NCBI GenBank assembly: GCA_033344815.1
Contig: JAWPMR010000001.1
Span: forward strand, 1,226,136 to 1,290,135
Direction: 5' to 3'
Source of the DNA: Paracoccaceae bacterium
GTDB lineage: Bacteria > Pseudomonadota > Alphaproteobacteria > Rhodobacterales > Rhodobacteraceae
Length of the DNA stretch: 64,000 bases
The notes beneath the pieces are model-generated. The model was not told the DNA's origin. It was given only the letters and a program-made list of their open reading frames with translations, and did not search any database. Shown here piece after piece: positions 6,472 to 13,561 of this stretch. The position numbers were made by a program, and so were the translations under genes. Numbering within the stretch: the first letter of the stretch is position 1; each line of letters opens with the position of its first letter.

Positions 6472-7027
6472 TTAGTGACGGTCAGACCACGCAACATCAT
6501 AAACCTGTTCATGGAGCTCGTCGTCACCATCCATCCAACCTTTTACGATCTGGACACGATCCAGGTTTGCCCCAATGGGGTCGCGCAACGCATAGATCAT
6601 GAACTTCGGAGCATCAGCGGTTGCACGGCGTAGGTCCGCCCCCATTGGAACACCTTTCTGGTATCCGGCAAAGGCGGGTTGGCGGCCTCTGAGGTCTGCT
6701 GCGGAAAACTCCCAGCCTCCGAAGAAGCGGACCATCATACGCGGGCCGGTGGTTGCATAGACCTCGCGCCGCACCATCGCGTCCCAAAGGCTTTCGCGCG
6801 TGTTCTCTTCGGCCCAGACGCCGGTGTATCCGGATGCCGAAAGAGCCCAGCCTGGAAACTCACCTAGATCCGTCTTGGTAAATGGGTGGTTTACTCGGTT
6901 CGCAGATGGTTCAGCGTTGGTTGCTTTTCCAAAGTAATTATCGCTGTCAGCGGTTGAGAGCGACGTATGGCTGTCCGTGGCCCCGGAAAACCCAAACCGG
7001 TAGGGATTAACACCAAACTTCATTTGG
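6472..7027 (-). pseudogene. DUF3604 protein remnant, C-proximal fragment
   Basis: Continuation of the fragment at 9544-9898 on the far side of the IS66 element. It starts [20 protein letters not shown], a hallmark of DUF3604 proteins (a PHP-like metal-binding fold of unknown activity). It ends at YDVAWSDRH followed by a stop, whereas full-length members run on for roughly 60-80 more residues, so the 3' end is also lost. The copy is therefore broken by transposon insertion and truncated at both ends. It lies next to tRNA-Gly, a common site for integration and deletion. Confidence 0.8.
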
Positions 7028-7049
7028 GTAAGCGTCCGGTCAGGCCGGT

Positions 7050-8634
7050 TTATGGGGCGGTTTTCCATGGCAGGAGATCATCGACACGGTTGATCTTGTA
7101 ATCTGGAATGCGAGCGAGTGTGTCGGCCAGCCAGACCTGCGGATCAATGCCGTTCAGTTTGGCGGTTTCGATCAGGTTATAGGCGATAGCGGCGGCGCGG
7201 CCACCGGTCTGTGATCCAACGAACAGGTAGTTCTTGCGCCCGATTGCGACGGACCGCATCGCCCGTTCGGCTGTGGTGTTGTCCAACTCCAAGATGCCGT
7301 GGTCGAGGTAAGGACGCAGCCGAGCCATGCGCGTCAGGGCATAGCGGATTGTCCCCGCCAGCGGTGACTTACCAGAGATACTGGGGAGTTGGGCGTGTAG
7401 CCAGGCTTCGAGATCGTCGAAGATCGATTTTGCCTGCGCTTGTCGGAGATGCGCACGCCGTTCTGGCGGCGATCCACGGGCCTCTTTCTCGACAGCGTAG
7501 AGCTGCGCGATACGCTTTATGGCTTCATCTGCGATTGCCGAACCCTGAGCGCGGTGGACGTCCACGAACTTACGTCCCGCTGCCCGGCAGTCGTTTGCGC
7601 AGCGAAACGATGAGAGGGGACATGCGCCATGCAGGCGACCTCGCGGATATCGCCTGAACGGTAAAGGTCTTCGAACCCGGCATAGCCGTCCGCATGCATC
7701 CAGCCATGGTATTTGGCGAGATGATCTTTGGGGTGCTGGCCTTTGCGATCAGGGGAGATTTGATACCAGCTTGCGGGTGGCACGTCGCTGCCCCACGGTC
7801 TCTCGTCGCGCCCATAGGCCATAATCGCGCGGTCGCGGTCTTTCCGGTGCCGGGTGCCAGCATTTTGACCGGCGTGTCGTCTGCAAAGATCGCTCACCCG
7901 GCCAGCACGTGCCGTCCAATGGCATCGGCCAGTGGTTCCAAAAGTGCTGTGGACTTGCCGATCCAATCCGCCAGCGTTGAACGATCAATGTCGATCCCAT
8001 CGCGCTCGAAGATGCCGCTTTGGCGATAGAGCGGCAGATGGTCGGCGTATTTGTTAACCAGAACATACGCCAGCAAACCCGGACCGGGGCGGCCCCGTTC
8101 GATGGGACGCAATGGCAATGCGGCTTGTGTGAATGCCTCGCAACCCGAACAGGCAAAGCGCGGTCGAACGATGCGGTTCACAATGAAGCGGCCAGGAACG
8201 TATTCCAGTTCCTCGGTCACGTCCTCGCCCAGGCGGCGCAGTCCACCATCGCATTGAGGGCAATCATCATCGCCAGTCGTCAGCTCCACCTCCATGCGCG
8301 GGATGTGATCGGGGATCGGGCGGCGCTTGGGTTTGTCTTGCGGCTCTTCGTCAGGAAGACGCAGCTTTGCTGTCATCTTGGCAACGGCGATCCCGCTTGT
8401 TTCCAGCGCAAGTTGAAGCTGTTCGATGCTCTCGGATGACGACCCGAACCGGTGATGGCCCCTCTCGGCAGATTTGACTGCACCAAATCGCCTGCCGGGC
8501 AAGGGTTGACCAGCCAGCTGATGCCGCAACTTCTCGATCAAGACTGCCTGCGACTTCACCTCGGCCAGCAAAAGCGCTGTGAACTACCTCAGCTCGTCAG
8601 GATCTTTCGGTAAAGATTTGTCGACGTCCAGCAT
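7050..8634 (-). pseudogene. tnpC: IS66 transposase TnpC, multiply inactivated
   Basis: The IS66 DDE transposase broken into pieces. Reading from ATG at 8634 (MLDVDKSLPKDPDELR) there is a TAG at 8584-8586 (codon 17). The main N-terminal part with zinc-finger-like CPQC and CSGC pairs follows, then a TGA after RHVLAG near 7894. A frameshift lies between ARLWPM and YGRDERPW, and another between MAHV and the continuation that includes VDVHRAQGSAI. The C-terminal 171 residues are open and include NTTAERAMRSVAIGRKNYLF. Two nonsense changes and two frameshifts mean no functional transposase. Confidence 0.85.
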
Positions 8635-8683
8635 GGCCAGACCATAACAAAACAACAGCGCGACGGGAATCCCATGCGGGCGT

Positions 8684-9031
8684 TTATCCTGCCTTGAGCG
8701 GTGTCCAACTGCGCTGCGGCACACGCCAATCGATCCCTTCCAAAAGCATTGCCAACTGAGTTGGCGTCAGGGCTATTTTGCCCTCTTTCGCCGATGGCCA
8801 CACGAACCGACCCTTCTCCAAGCGCTTACTGAACAGGCAGGCACCTTGTCCGTCCCACCAAATGATTTTGATGAGATCGCCGCGCCGACCACGGAAGACA
8901 AACAGATGGCCCGTGAACGGATCCTGCTTCAGCGTTTGTTCGGCCTGCGCCGCAAGCGTTGTGAACCCACGCCGCATGTCGGTCACACCGGCAGCCAGCC
9001 AGACCCGCGTGGTCGCCGGAACCGGGATCAT
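8684..9031 (-). CDS. tnpB: IS66 accessory protein TnpB (IS66 Orf2)
   Basis: 115 residues, full length for IS66 Orf2. It contains the diagnostic [14 protein letters not shown] and [20 protein letters not shown] segments. Its start overlaps the tnpA stop (ATGA-type junction), as in intact IS66 elements, which suggests translational coupling. It is the only intact gene of the element and is probably non-functional on its own. Confidence 0.9.
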
Positions 9032-9458
9032 ACAGACAGACCTCGGATGAGCCGGGCCAGTACTTCTGGATCATAGCTGCCAACAATCCTCAGCTGATGA
9101 CCGCCTGCGATGTCGATCTCAATTGCGCAGTGTTCGGAAGCGGCATTGGCTGCAAGAGTGGGGGTCGGTTCTTCGGCCACCGGCCGATCAACAATCTCAA
9201 CTGGAAGGAAACAAGACTGAGGGGCAGCCTGTTCTTCGACGGCCTTCAGATCGGGTGCAGATTTTGGATCACGCAGCCACTTATGGATCAGATTGGTGTT
9301 CATCCACTGCCAGGCAGTGCATGTTTGCATGCACGAGAGGGGGCATACCGCCGCGCGACCTGCCCCACCGATACCCCCGGCGCGCACGTTTGCAAGCAGA
9401 TCGAAACCTTCTCCTCATCCGACCAGAAACGCTTCTTCTGACCCTTCTTCCCCGCCAT
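9028..9458 (-). pseudogene. tnpA: IS66 TnpA (Orf1), disrupted by a 38-bp palindromic insertion
   Basis: The N-terminal half starts MAGKKGQKKRFWSDEEKVSI at 9458 and reads through a helix-turn-helix segment to VARRYA. The expected continuation MNTNLIHKWLRD is found, but 38 bp later and in another frame. The intervening bases (9304-9341) form two overlapping inverted repeats. The C-terminal half reads open to 9028. Confidence 0.75.
9304..9341. repeat. 38-bp palindromic insertion inside IS66 tnpA
   Basis: Contains CACTGCC-A-GGCAGTG (9305-9319) and the overlapping TGCATG-TTTG-CATGCA (9318-9333). Removing exactly these 38 bp restores the usual TnpA frame (RRYA joined to MNTNLIHKW). The extent comes from that frame argument, not from a matching copy elsewhere in the window. 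Confidence 0.5.
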
Positions 9459-9543
9459 ATCTGCCCTCAAGATGTCCACTATCGTTGGTGGACACTATCA
9501 ACACACTCTATGAACCGTCAGAGCAGCCAGGCCGAACGCTTAC

Positions 9544-9898
9544 TATTTTCCAGCAGGAAGCCTTGTTTCAGTGCTTCCCGAGCATATTCCCCATGCAGCA
9601 TATCATTTGTTTTTGCTGCCGAGAGATCCATGTTCCCCACATCCCAAGTCTCGAAATCAGCAAAAGTATCTCCCGGAGACAAGACCGGATGGGTTTCGCC
9701 GTCACCCTTGATCTGGGTGATTTCATAGAGTGGCTCCCACTTAGCCCTGGCCATGACATAGGCTTCATCAACCAGATCCCCGGTAAAGCGGGTGTCAGTC
9801 GGGAACATTGTCCCATTTGACAAGTTGCCATTGTGCGCGAGAGCAAAAACCTGCCCGCCGGTTTCGGCTTCGTATTGCTCAATGCGTAAGCTTTTCAA
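9544..9898 (-). pseudogene. DUF3604 protein remnant, middle fragment
   Basis: Reads [19 protein letters not shown], then [18 protein letters not shown] and [14 protein letters not shown] before running into the IS66 end. These are consecutive conserved blocks of DUF3604 proteins, and the sequence resumes at 7027. The first open codon is a TTG at 9898. Four codons farther upstream is an in-frame TAG, and the roughly 200 N-terminal residues of the family are missing. Confidence 0.8.
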
Positions 9899-10021: not shown

Positions 10022-13000
10022 TCACTCTGGCCGTTCAAAGCCCAATTTTCCCAGAATTCTCGTGTACCTCTCTATCTGTTTTGTCTTAATTTTTTTCGGG
10101 TTTTCTCGCATATTTGCCAATGCTTCAGGATGGAGCCCCATGGCTTTTGCCACCTCAACTTTGTTCTCTTCAGTTAAATACTTCTTCAGGAACGTCTGAA
10201 CTGCTGCCTGGAAAACCTTGAGGTTCGCCGTCTGATTTGTTTTCCTGCGCTTTGCCTTTTCAATTGCAAAAGTTGATATGCCGCTGCCCCTTGGCGCTAG
10301 CGCCTGGTCAAGCTTCAGAATGTTTCCTGTGATGGTATCTTCGTCCGTGAACATAGCATCAAGCGCAGTAAAACGGCCCGCCAAAGCACCCTCTGGATTA
10401 TATTCGAGATGCTCACGCTTGGCAGCAGGTTTGAAACTATCGTCATCTGCCCCCACAAAAAAATCGTCGAATTGTTTCTTACCCCTTTTAGTCTCCGCTT
10501 TCCCCAGCGGTGCTGATTTATCCGGTCTGGTACGGTATTGACTGCGACTGGAGTAAGAAGAGAAATCAGATTGGTAGAACTGATGGAACTCCAAGAAGAA
10601 GGCGCGGTAATCTTTCATGTCCAAACCAGCCTTGCGCGCAGCGTGTATTATTTCGACAAAAGCTTCCTCTTTTTCGTACTTACCTTTCATGTACTCACCA
10701 AACGGATCACCCGACACGATAGCCTCGATCGCTTTAAATTCACTCTCTTCGGACCACAGGTCTCTGTAATTGCGCATCATTTCAACCGTCAGCCGGTGCT
10801 CACCTTCTGGATCCTTGCCAAATTGTGCCTTTGAATTGGTTTTTTCGATGTCATGAAAGAGGATCATCTTGGCCATCGCGGTGCGGGAGATCACGCGATG
10901 CTCATCTGTTGTTGCAATTTTCATGAATTGCCCAAGCACCATCTGAGCATGTTCGTAAAACTCGTATTGCTCGGACTTTGCCGAAATCTTGGTAAAAAAC
11001 GGTTTTAGTTCAGGCACTTCACCAATCAGGAAATCCAACATATCGACAGGGCTTCCACCTGCGCGAAAAATTTCGTCTATCCGTTGGCCTGTGGCTTGTT
11101 GTGCTTTGCGCCGTTCGGCAGCCTCCTCACGGTTTTGAGCAAAAGCATTTGTCCCGAACCCGCTCTCTTCGGGCGCTTTGACGTTTTCGTCCTTGTCCAT
11201 GGTGTCGTAGTCTTCGGCCATCGTATGCTCCAGCATCGCTTGCGTGGCCCAGGGTGCGACGACGTTGTGCATGAAGTCGTAGGCAGCCTCCGGCTTGCGC
11301 AGGCCATTTGCCGCCAGAAAATCGTCCAGCATTTTAGAACGCGACTCGAAAGGAATTTTCTTCTTGTTTTCCGCTAGCAGGGGGTGAGGACCGGGATCCT
11401 TGCGCCCTTCCATAACTTGAAGCCACGTAACATAGTACATGTTCAGTTGATTGGCTTTGGGTCCTGTATGCTTACGGTCAATAAAGCCCGCCCCTTCGAT
11501 CCAGACGGAATACTTCTCTGGTTTACTCCCTTTATTTCCGGGTTCAAAAACTTCACGATCCGGGACGCCCATGCGCGCCCTGAGCTCTGCGGCATCGCGG
11601 ATTTCGCCCGCAGTGGTTTCCTTGGAAGCGCCCTCAGTCTGCGCGCGTGTCGCCTCCGGATCATACGCATGTGTTATCAGGGACTGAGGCAATGCATGTT
11701 CGCGCAAAAGATCCAGATCGCCGCCCTTGACGCCAAATTGATTTGGCTCCGCGTGTCGATCGACGTTGAAGGTCCTGTCCTCAAAACCCTCATCCGTCGC
11801 CTGGGCTTCCGAGATTGCCCGCTTGGAGATGTCGTTGAACACGCTGAGAGGGATCAGAAAGGATCGGATCAAAGGATTGTTGATCGAGGCGCTGATTGCG
11901 GCTTGTTTCCGAGCGGCGTCGATCAAAGGCGCCAGTTCGTCGATCTTTTCGTCATCCGAACTTGCTCGAGCCCTGATAAGTTCGAGCTCTAGAGCTTCAG
12001 CCTTTTCCGTCTCGCTCGCCGCGCGCGCCTGATGTTCAGCGATGTATTTCTCAGCCCATTTCATCTGCCTCAGAACGCGGCCACCACTGGTCCACATCAT
12101 GCCGTTCGCACCGGTTGAGATTATGATTTTACCCGAAGCCGCGTCTTGTTGGACGTCTTTAAAGGCGGAATCACCAACCCCGGTTTCAGCGTCCGAACTC
12201 GTGAAGTCTGCGGCAGCGGCCACCGCAGAATAAAGCCGTACATAGGGTACACCCTTGACGGTCTCTATCTCGACCACACCGCGATGTATGGCTTCGCTGC
12301 CCTCCTCAACACCTTTGGTCGGGCCCAGATAGCTGATCCCTTCAAGCCCGATCACCGGATCGCCACTTACGGCGTCCCTGCTGTCGCTTCTGGGTTCAGT
12401 ATGGGAATGGTCTGGCGATGATGGGGGTTTCTTTGGCCTTCGGGCATCTTTTGCCGCCCTCTCGCGTTCCATCAGGAGCGGGTCACCAGCCAGCACGGCT
12501 GTGACAGCAGCCCCGATCTGTGCCGGGCGGTCCCCGGTGCTGACATCATGGACAACCATTGTCAGGATCTGGATGATGGCCTCATCCGACATTCCAGATG
12601 AAATCGTGCGCCGGGCCGTCTTCATATCCTTTGCCAAGGCATTTTTTTTATTTCGAACGATAAACAGCCCGTCGATCAGGCAATTGCCATCTGCCACCGT
12701 CTGCATCGCGCCTCGTTTGAACTTATTGCCTTCCTGATCCCGAAAGTCGAACCTGTCACCACCTGTGGGTTCAATCACAATGTAATGATTGCTGTTCACA
12801 AACAAAAGAATGCCGCGATGCGCGTTCCCCTCACCGTAGCGAATAATCCGACGGATAAACGGTTCCGTTGGCACGGGTTGCTCATAAATGGAAGCGTCAA
12901 CACCCCAGGCATGCGCCAGAACAGTGCCTTCGCCCTCCGTCAAATACGAGCGCGAATTGATGTAGTCGACCCGTTGGGCGTCAATGGCTGCATCACCGAT

Positions 13001-13561
13001 ATGAATGACATCTTCGTCTTCCTGCGCCTCAAGCAAAGGTTCCTGCGGACGTTGAAATGCGTGCTCAGCAAGTGCCAGTAACTTGTCATCGACGGTCGTT
13101 GTGCCAAACCCGCGCAGGTTTGAGATCAGTGCCTGCAATGCTGGTCGGTTCGTTTTAGCTGCTTGTTCAATCCAGCTTGGTAAATACTCAGCGCCCCGCC
13201 CGCCAGTATCAACTTCCCATAGATTGTCACCAGATTGCTTTGGGTAGGGAAGCTTCAGCGCGAGCCTTTGTACGATGCCGGAACTTACCGCTGCCGCAGC
13301 TGTATCATTCTCAAAACCCTCTAAAGTGCGCATGCCAGATGGATCTTTTGCAACCTGCTGCAGGACAGACAGCGACGTCGCAGCGGCACTTTTACTTGCC
13401 GCAGTTTGCAGCATCGCCAGTTGATTGCAAATCTCCATTCCAGACCCGCCCTGCTCTTTCAAGACACGAACAGGCGCACGCTGCCCTCGGCTTGCATGCA
13501 AAGCGTTGGATCGATTTTTTGCAGGAACGGATTCAGGCACTTTGACGGTACAAGGTGGCAA
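10022..13561 (-). CDS. Large multidomain protein, candidate eCIS/polymorphic-toxin effector with permuted OTU-like and HD-like regions
   Basis: 1179 residues with no full-length family I recognise. At about 93-102 the stretch SSGIVQRLALK resembles the short VxQR-type motifs near the N-termini of eCIS-associated and DUF4157-type proteins. At about 206-300, VLAHAWGVDASIYEQ, GILLFVNSNHYIVIEP (His259) and then ADGNCLIDGL (Cys294) look like the two halves of an OTU cysteine protease in swapped order. A coiled-coil-like acidic/basic stretch lies at 505-560. His871, His903-Asp904 (ILFHDIEK) and His922 follow the H..HD..H spacing of HD phosphohydrolases. The last 40 residues (VAKAMGLHPEALANM to the end) resemble a helix-turn-helix. 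There is no signal peptide. The start is uncertain: this frame opens with TTG, while a well-placed ATG in another frame lies at 13631. Domain calls are inference; only the motifs are seen. No secretion-sheath genes are in the window. Confidence 0.6.
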   Translation of the reverse strand: MPPCTVKVPESVPAKNRSNALHASRGQRAPVRVLKEQGGSGMEICNQLAMLQTAASKSAAATSLSVLQQVAKDPSGMRTLEGFENDTAAAAVSSGIVQRLALKLPYPKQSGDNLWEVDTGGRGAEYLPSWIEQAAKTNRPALQALISNLRGFGTTTVDDKLLALAEHAFQRPQEPLLEAQEDEDVIHIGDAAIDAQRVDYINSRSYLTEGEGTVLAHAWGVDASIYEQPVPTEPFIRRIIRYGEGNAHRGILLFVNSNHYIVIEPTGGDRFDFRDQEGNKFKRGAMQTVADGNCLIDGLFIVRNKKNALAKDMKTARRTISSGMSDEAIIQILTMVVHDVSTGDRPAQIGAAVTAVLAGDPLLMERERAAKDARRPKKPPSSPDHSHTEPRSDSRDAVSGDPVIGLEGISYLGPTKGVEEGSEAIHRGVVEIETVKGVPYVRLYSAVAAAADFTSSDAETGVGDSAFKDVQQDAASGKIIISTGANGMMWTSGGRVLRQMKWAEKYIAEHQARAASETEKAEALELELIRARASSDDEKIDELAPLIDAARKQAAISASINNPLIRSFLIPLSVFNDISKRAISEAQATDEGFEDRTFNVDRHAEPNQFGVKGGDLDLLREHALPQSLITHAYDPEATRAQTEGASKETTAGEIRDAAELRARMGVPDREVFEPGNKGSKPEKYSVWIEGAGFIDRKHTGPKANQLNMYYVTWLQVMEGRKDPGPHPLLAENKKKIPFESRSKMLDDFLAANGLRKPEAAYDFMHNVVAPWATQAMLEHTMAEDYDTMDKDENVKAPEESGFGTNAFAQNREEAAERRKAQQATGQRIDEIFRAGGSPVDMLDFLIGEVPELKPFFTKISAKSEQYEFYEHAQMVLGQFMKIATTDEHRVISRTAMAKMILFHDIEKTNSKAQFGKDPEGEHRLTVEMMRNYRDLWSEESEFKAIEAIVSGDPFGEYMKGKYEKEEAFVEIIHAARKAGLDMKDYRAFFLEFHQFYQSDFSSYSSRSQYRTRPDKSAPLGKAETKRGKKQFDDFFVGADDDSFKPAAKREHLEYNPEGALAGRFTALDAMFTDEDTITGNILKLDQALAPRGSGISTFAIEKAKRRKTNQTANLKVFQAAVQTFLKKYLTEENKVEVAKAMGLHPEALANMRENPKKIKTKQIERYTRILGKLGFERPE

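What the first reader, a model, noticed from the sequence alone, without database searches (positions are those of the whole stretch)
10022..13561. Giant orphan protein with an apparently permuted OTU-like protease, an HD-like motif and an HTH-like tail
Seen: His259 in VNSNHYIVIEP precedes Cys294 in ADGNCLIDGL by 35 residues. In ordinary OTU proteases the DGNCLF-type Cys helix comes first and the HY strand last. The segments before the His (VLAHAWGVDASIY, GILLFV) resemble the C-half of OTU, and those after the Cys resemble the N-half, as expected for circular permutation. Also seen: H871, H903-D904, H922 in HD spacing, an SSGIVQRL stretch near residue 95 and an HTH-like C-terminus. Inference: a secreted or eCIS-loaded effector acting on host or rival ubiquitin-like or nucleotide targets. 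The gene sits in an island beside tRNA-Gly without its own delivery genes.
Basis: partly seen in the sequence, partly recalled or inferred. Interest (0 to 1): 0.78.

Follow-up and report, generated by a model that had tools for sequence, protein, structure and literature searches.

The report
Multi-domain toxin with HD module
A lone bacterial gene encodes a large toxin-like protein whose second half is a conserved module otherwise found inside giant proteins of soil actinobacteria, and whose start resembles the tags of proteins tied to the same cell's phage-tail-like syringe; the claimed inside-out protease is plausible but unproven.

Summary
The ORF and residues named are real, but the protein is no full orphan. 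Residues 403-1093 align in one piece with a giant actinobacterial protein (29%, E 7e-74), and the module's first domain recurs in 26 of 249 genomes of Lentzea's family, mostly in very large ORFs. The module has two parts: an unnamed domain (396-660; nine residues identical in 32 of 32 rows) and an HD-type domain (H871, H903-D904, H922 in 24 of 24 rows, D999 in 23; three degenerate copies lost H871 and H903-D904 together). The HD call is sound.

The permuted OTU-like protease (H259 before C294) rests on motifs alone. No homologue covers it and the AlphaFold model is too weak to judge (pLDDT 42.5). Permuted OTU-type enzymes have precedents (EschOTU, LupA).

The genome carries an eCIS cluster about 1 Mb away and two eCIS_core proteins. 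P0001's N-terminus is the best of 106 against both of their leaders. I read P0001 as a probable unlinked eCIS cargo: a multi-domain toxin whose best-supported activity is metal-dependent phosphohydrolysis. The HTH-like tail found no support; an ADP-ribosyltransferase identity for 396-660, my own first guess, was tested and not met.

The parts
10022..13561 (-). P0001, whole ORF, 1179 aa from TTG (1138 from the ATG at residue 42)
13262..13501 (-). Residues 21-100: leader-like stretch that aligns with the leader of the eCIS_core protein L073 (residues 36-75 also with L074)
   Evidence: shuffles; rank 1 of 106 natural N-termini
12527..13024 (-). Residues 180-345: possible permuted papain/OTU-like segment with H259, D275, C294
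   Evidence: motifs only; no family match; model pLDDT 42.5
12785..12787 (-). Codon of H259 (followed by aromatic Y260)
12680..12682 (-). Codon of C294 in DGNC
11582..12376 (-). Residues 396-660: conserved unnamed domain (R427, Y444, D469, Q472, R566, S567, N599, N607, S627 in 32 of 32 rows)
10982..11644 (-). Residues 640-860: linking, mostly helical region, matched best by L061-L065
   Evidence: E 7e-17 for L065; helices in the weak model
10553..11029 (-). Residues 845-1003: HD-type domain with H871, H903-D904, H922, H993, D999
10025..10282 (-). Residues 1094-1179: C-terminal tail without homologues; HTH suggestion not supported

Best explanation
P0001 is a multi-domain toxin or effector. Its C-terminal half (403-1093) is a conserved two-domain module that otherwise sits inside giant toxin-like proteins, chiefly of Pseudonocardiaceae. 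Shown: collinear homology of the module; strict conservation of an HD-type residue set; an eCIS cluster in the genome; an N-terminus like the leaders of that genome's two eCIS_core proteins. Inferred: the leader lets the eCIS load the protein although the gene is unlinked; in the target cell the HD part hydrolyses a phosphoester (a nucleotide, second messenger or nucleotide-linked molecule) with bound metal; residues 396-660 bind or modify the same target; residues 180-345 may be a permuted papain-like protease (H259, C294) that either frees the module by cutting the chain or cleaves a target protein.
For: Module homology: one-piece alignment with L065, 29% over 784 columns, E 7e-74; Lentzea 30% and 36% over two stretches; 26 of 249 genomes. 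HD site: with loss of the set in L062-L064. Toxin company: Scabin-like ART domains directly upstream of the module in both relatives scanned, L061 and L065 (2 of 5 such ORFs scanned); a T7SS-associated gene about 2.7 kb behind the Streptomyces copy. eCIS: Pfam families of the cluster, eCIS_core proteins, leader shuffles 10 and 20 of 2000 (from residue 42: 1 and 14 of 2000) and rank 1 of 106 for both leaders.
Against: No activity or substrate is known. The gene is about 1 Mb from the eCIS cluster, while 88% of known eCIS toxins lie within ten genes (PMC11297309, passages read). P0001 has no eCIS_core domain. Leader similarity is short and rich in A, L and Q; residues 40-75 alone against L073 are reached by 63 of 2000 shuffles. 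P0001 itself has no Pfam match to HD. Both structure models are weak.
Confidence: 0.55

Rival explanations
1. The same toxin, but not an eCIS cargo: it leaves by the genome's T6SS or by lysis, and the leader resemblance is chance between LQ- and Ala-rich helices.
For: A VipB (T6SS) gene is present, in a region whose ORFs look like a T6SS cluster by eye (not scanned). P0001 is about 1 Mb from the eCIS cluster.
Against: P0001 ranks first of 106 natural N-termini against both leaders with clear margins, 53 against 39 and 49 against 40. No T6SS gene lies among the ten neighbouring ORFs scanned.
Confidence: 0.3
2. Residues 180-345 are not a protease: the DGNC and HY motifs are chance or a worn remnant of a domain that no longer acts.
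For: No homologue, no family match, no PDB match. The position two after H259, acidic or Asn in most OTUs (PMC7396840, passages), is Ile. In 18 of 32 actinobacterial and P0001 rows examined a loose pattern of my own finds an OTU-strand-like segment without Cys motif before the module, an impression only.
Against: DGNC is rare in shuffles (3 of 20000); it holds the only Cys beyond residue 45; the His is followed by an aromatic residue, the gatekeeper mark of deubiquitinases (PMC7391069, passages); His-first OTUs exist (EschOTU).
Confidence: 0.45
3. A SidE-like ubiquitin modifier: protease, ADP-ribosyltransferase and phosphodiesterase in one chain, acting on ubiquitin.
For: SidE enzymes join a mART domain and a PDE that resembles HD domains (PMC6941232, passages); SdeA also has a papain-fold deubiquitinase (PMC10318531, passages). 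P0001 may carry a comparable set.
Against: The 396-660 profile does not match the neighbouring Scabin-like ARTs (hhalign probability 0.2%, against a shallow five-row profile) nor any Pfam ART (16 members scanned). SdeA's PDE uses H277, E340 and H407, while this domain keeps a classical HD set.
Confidence: 0.05
4. A relic: a horizontally acquired gene that is no longer used.
For: It lies among broken genes and IS66 pieces, is alone in its family sample and has a lower GC3 than four neighbours, 0.554 against 0.599-0.644.
Against: A 1179-codon frame without a stop, with the HD residue set intact on a very long branch.
Confidence: 0.12

Closest known systems
Giant multi-toxin proteins of actinobacteria (Zhang et al. 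2012, PMC3482391, passages read)
   Same: Large proteins that chain several toxin domains, among them ARTs and OTU peptidases; the homologous module lies in ORFs of this sort.
   Different: P0001 is a stand-alone 1179-aa protein of another phylum. The words 'HD domain' and 'permut' do not occur in the held part of that paper, so the module described here was not found named there.
HD-domain phosphohydrolases (Pfam PF01966)
   Same: H871...H903-D904...D999 plus H922, invariant in 24 of 24 rows (D999 23 of 24).
   Different: P0001 itself is below Pfam's reach; flanking motifs such as FHQ.YQ.DFSSY were not found in any PDB sequence at a convincing E-value.
EschOTU, permuted OTU deubiquitinase (PMC7396840, passages read)
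   Same: His before Cys; aromatic after the His; an Asp 16 after the His (D278 there, D275 here).
   Different: EschOTU uses N264, two after its His, where P0001 has Ile; D278 of EschOTU is too far from its His to act. No sequence match between them was found.
LupA (PF18242), permuted relative of LotA (PMC10318531, passages read)
   Same: A circularly permuted member of the OTU cluster.
   Different: No Pfam match of P0001 to it or any other model.
eCIS-associated toxins (PMC11297309, passages read)
   Same: Leader resemblance to the genome's two eCIS_core proteins; an eCIS cluster in the genome.
   Different: About 1 Mb from the cluster; no eCIS_core domain of its own.
SidE family (PMC6941232, passages read)
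   Same: A possible mix of protease and HD-like phosphodiesterase in one chain.
   Different: Classical HD set instead of His, Glu, His; no ART match at 396-660.

Membership tests
HD phosphohydrolases (PF01966) | H...HD...D residue set | tested here: met
   H871, H903-D904 24 of 24 rows, D999 23 of 24; three degenerate copies left out of that alignment lack it
HD phosphohydrolases (PF01966) | Match to the family profile | tested here: inconclusive
   3 of 14 members, best E 0.0065; P0001 none
HD phosphohydrolases (PF01966) | HD fold | tested here: inconclusive
   all-helical but pLDDT 43, pTM 0.30; fold search never accepted
HD phosphohydrolases (PF01966) | Metal-dependent phosphohydrolase activity | not testable with these tools
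   needs protein
OTU peptidases | Cys motif of the DGNC type | tested here: met
   C294
OTU peptidases | Catalytic His followed by an aromatic residue | tested here: met
   H259-Y260
OTU peptidases | Asp, Asn or Glu two after the His (all but the A20 type, PMC7396840) | tested here: not met
   I261
OTU peptidases | Match to an OTU profile or structure sequence | tested here: not met
   pieces searched apart
OTU peptidases | OTU fold with H259 near C294 | tested here: inconclusive
   pLDDT 42.5, pTM 0.39
eCIS cargo | eCIS in the same genome | tested here: met
eCIS cargo | Leader like those of eCIS_core proteins | tested here: met
   rank 1 of 106 for both leaders; shuffles
eCIS cargo | Gene within about ten genes of the eCIS operon (common, not strict) | tested here: not met
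   C1:1236160-1239696 against 2246000-2265900
eCIS cargo | eCIS_core domain in cis (common, not strict) | tested here: not met
   no Pfam match; two eCIS_core proteins elsewhere
eCIS cargo | Presence in particles | not testable with these tools
   needs an experiment
Toxin module of giant actinobacterial proteins | Both module domains in the same order | tested here: met
   403-1093 with L065
Toxin module of giant actinobacterial proteins | Giant carrier protein | tested here: not met
   1179 aa
ADP-ribosyltransferases (for 396-660) | Profile match to an ART | tested here: not met
   the comparison profile had only five rows
SidE enzymes | PDE with the His, Glu, His set | tested here: inconclusive
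   a classical HD set is conserved instead; no alignment to SidE was made
HTH proteins (C-terminal tail) | Match to an HTH profile | tested here: not met
   residues 1068-1179 scanned, no HTH family at E 10

The most novel reading that the evidence does not exclude
An eCIS-injected effector with three active centres in one chain: a permuted OTU-like protease, an enzyme of unrecognised fold at 396-660 and an HD hydrolase, the last two acting in turn on one nucleotide-linked target. The module would be a new kind of toxin chemistry shared by an eCIS cargo of a proteobacterium-like genome and by giant toxins of actinobacteria.
Probability: 0.1. Interest if true: 0.85.

Novelty: new variant of a known kind. 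Interest (0 to 1): 0.52.

Why it matters
It describes a conserved module with a strict HD residue set for which the libraries scanned gave P0001 no name, shows it both inside giant actinobacterial proteins and in a stand-alone protein of a genome where no relative was found in the sampled family, class or phylum, and makes its chemistry directly testable. If the leader is a loading signal, eCIS cargo can lie far from the eCIS cluster and could be found by leader similarity.

Tried and rejected
N-terminal half: tblastn with the stretch window:12340-13231 (residues 111-407) in plasmids and phages gave only E 2 to 9; viral contigs with the whole protein, A1, A5 and the protease region gave none; phages with the whole protein none; PDB sequences only chance-level hits; Pfam with pieces of the protease region no convincing match; PHROGs two weak hits, E 0.016 and 0.13, not followed.

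An own-genome hit at E 0.17 (L003) reads by eye like a Rieske-type oxygenase from 300 bases (not searched) and was dropped.

I first took residues 396-660 for an ADP-ribosyltransferase; profile comparison and Pfam did not bear it out and I dropped the label. Scripts and notes still call the domain ART.

Rows dropped: L066, the same Lentzea protein as L004, from both alignments; L062, L063, L064, below threshold and degenerate, from the 24-row HD alignment (shown). L061 has no HD match in the stretch held.

The HD tree puts P0001 on a very long branch with unsure place; no donor is named. Class-wide searches with the protein scored only two candidates per genome, so weak relatives may be missed.
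Full report
The observation. The ORF 10022-13561 on the minus strand is open and encodes 1179 aa from a TTG, or 1138 from the ATG at residue 42. C294 is the only cysteine beyond residue 45. DGNC[LFIMYV] arises in 3 of 20000 shuffles of the protein, a test made after the motif had been seen.

Who has it. P0001 matches no Pfam, NCBIfam or PADLOC model at E 1. Searches of 295 genomes of its family and 385 of its class with the protein, and 398 of its phylum with the HD profile, found only P0001 itself. In plasmids one of 72,556 records matches: a Streptomyces plasmid, residues 402-788, inside a 90-kb CDS, with a gene named T7SS-associated about 2.7 kb behind it. A genome scan with these two rows found one relative among 64 candidate stretches, in Lentzea atacamensis, where a 4936-aa frame matches residues 390-749 and 759-1090. 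A three-row profile of the first domain then hit 26 of 249 genomes of Lentzea's family, Lentzea included, one weakly (E 3e-4, one stop inside); the frames range from 598 to 13455 aa. Over Lentzea's class, the protein query hit 1 of 394 genomes and the HD profile 1 of 266, in both cases Lentzea itself.

The module. In 27 fetched actinobacterial regions (L040-L066) plus L001 and L004, the 396-660 domain was found in 29 ORFs, of which L004 and L066 are one protein; 24 of the 29 also have the HD part by profile. The five without are L001, L050, L058, L060 and L061. In the first four of these the domain match ends 285-293 residues before the end of the frame. Where phmmer found both parts they are 497 to 965 residues apart, except in L065, where the gap is 186. 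L065, a 5857-aa frame in its genome, aligns with P0001 from residue 403 to 1093 in one piece (29%, E 7e-74).

The HD part. In a 24-row alignment E870, H871, H903, D904, K907, N909, H922, D952 and H993 are identical in all rows and D999 in 23. L062, L063 and L064 were too divergent for that alignment; they have Arg, Arg and Gly at H871, H903 and D904, and two of three lack H922, while H993 and D952 remain. Loss as a set is what one expects of an active site. Pfam's HD family matches 3 of 14 members, best E 0.0065, not P0001. I take this part as a metal-dependent phosphohydrolase; the substrate is unknown.

The first domain. R427, Y444, D469, Q472, R566, S567, N599, N607 and S627 are identical in 32 of 32 rows; K468, W490, R498, W502, Y506 and D601 in 27 of 32, the exceptions being L061 to L065. 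It may be an enzyme or a strict binding site. It is not shown to be an ADP-ribosyltransferase: comparison with a five-row profile of the ARTs upstream in L061-L065 is negative (two of those five, L061 and L065, were scanned and match Scabin-like).

The protease claim. No homologue covers residues 1-395 in the ORFs examined. In P0001 the order is H259, D275, C294. EschOTU shows that an OTU can run His first, and the authors also built a working permuted viral OTU (PMC7396840, passages read); LupA is another permuted relative (PMC10318531, passages read). The aromatic residue after H259 agrees with the gatekeeper mark of deubiquitinases (PMC7391069, passages read). Against it, the acid expected two after the His is Ile; D275 lies 16 after it, where EschOTU has D278, which is too far from its His to act. 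AlphaFold from the single sequence gave pLDDT 42.5 and pTM 0.39, and the module model 43.2 and 0.30; neither can decide anything, and fold search was never accepted.

Delivery. The genome has an eCIS cluster within C1:2246000-2265900, with Pfam matches to gp25, base_V, CIS_tube, two gp19-type tubes, sheath (PF17482, PF04984), Pvc16_N and an eCIS_core protein, and a second eCIS_core protein at C1:2372024. A VipB gene shows a T6SS. The two eCIS_core leaders resemble each other (0 of 2000 shuffles reach the score). P0001 residues 21-100 align with the first and 36-75 with the second; 10 and 20 of 2000 shuffles of residues 1-110 reach the scores, 1 and 14 of 2000 for residues 42-110, 63 and 2 of 2000 for residues 40-75. 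Among 106 N-termini of ORFs from the window and the eCIS and T6SS regions (two regions overlap, so a few ORFs count twice), P0001 is first against both leaders, 53 with a next best of 39, and 49 with 40. The alignment with the first leader begins before residue 42, which speaks for an early start. Against it stands the distance of about 1 Mb, when 88% of known eCIS toxins lie within ten genes of the operon (PMC11297309, passages read).

The surroundings. The gene sits among remains: two pieces of a DUF3604 gene with IS66 genes between them, the IS66 transposase itself in two frames; on the other side about 1.5 kb with no ORF over 156 aa that I could recognise, one of them scanned. GC3 of P0001 is 0.554 against 0.599-0.644 in four neighbours. 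With its isolation this suggests acquisition from outside. I did not search for an immunity gene.

Verdict. A known kind of thing, a multi-domain toxin, in an unusual form: a conserved module with a clear HD residue set, a possible permuted protease, and a likely eCIS leader on an unlinked gene.

Noticed in passing
L068:5541-17368 (G000:C1:2246000-2265900): An eCIS cluster in the window's genome, whose 770-aa sheath protein carries cadherin-like and Ig-like repeats between the sheath parts (Pfam), which seems unusual to me (no search made).
   Followed up: partly
L074 (G000:C1:2372024-2372221): A second eCIS_core protein (854-aa open frame) with a leader of LQ repeats and a long C-terminal part of unknown kind; possibly another unlinked eCIS cargo.
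   Followed up: partly
window 6472-9898: DUF3604 gene in two pieces (profile 204-316 and 314-496 of 591) with IS66 genes between them; the IS66 transposase is itself in two frames.
   Followed up: partly
L061, L065 (and by eye L062-L064), upstream of the module: Scabin-like ADP-ribosyltransferase domains lie directly before the module in giant actinobacterial frames (E 4e-32 and 2e-29 for the two scanned).
   Followed up: partly
L062, L063, L064: Degenerate HD parts that have lost H871, H903 and D904 together but keep H993 and D952, perhaps pseudoenzymes.
   Followed up: partly
L058:8886-11168, L060:8870-10663: Two short frames (761 and 598 aa) that end with the first module domain and carry an LQRxAGNxVVARM stretch before it, which recalls eCIS cargo leaders (recalled, not tested).
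   Followed up: no
L001 (Streptomyces plasmid NZ_CP109179.1): A 90-kb CDS annotated as glycosyltransferase whose last domain is homologous to P0001 402-788.
   Followed up: partly
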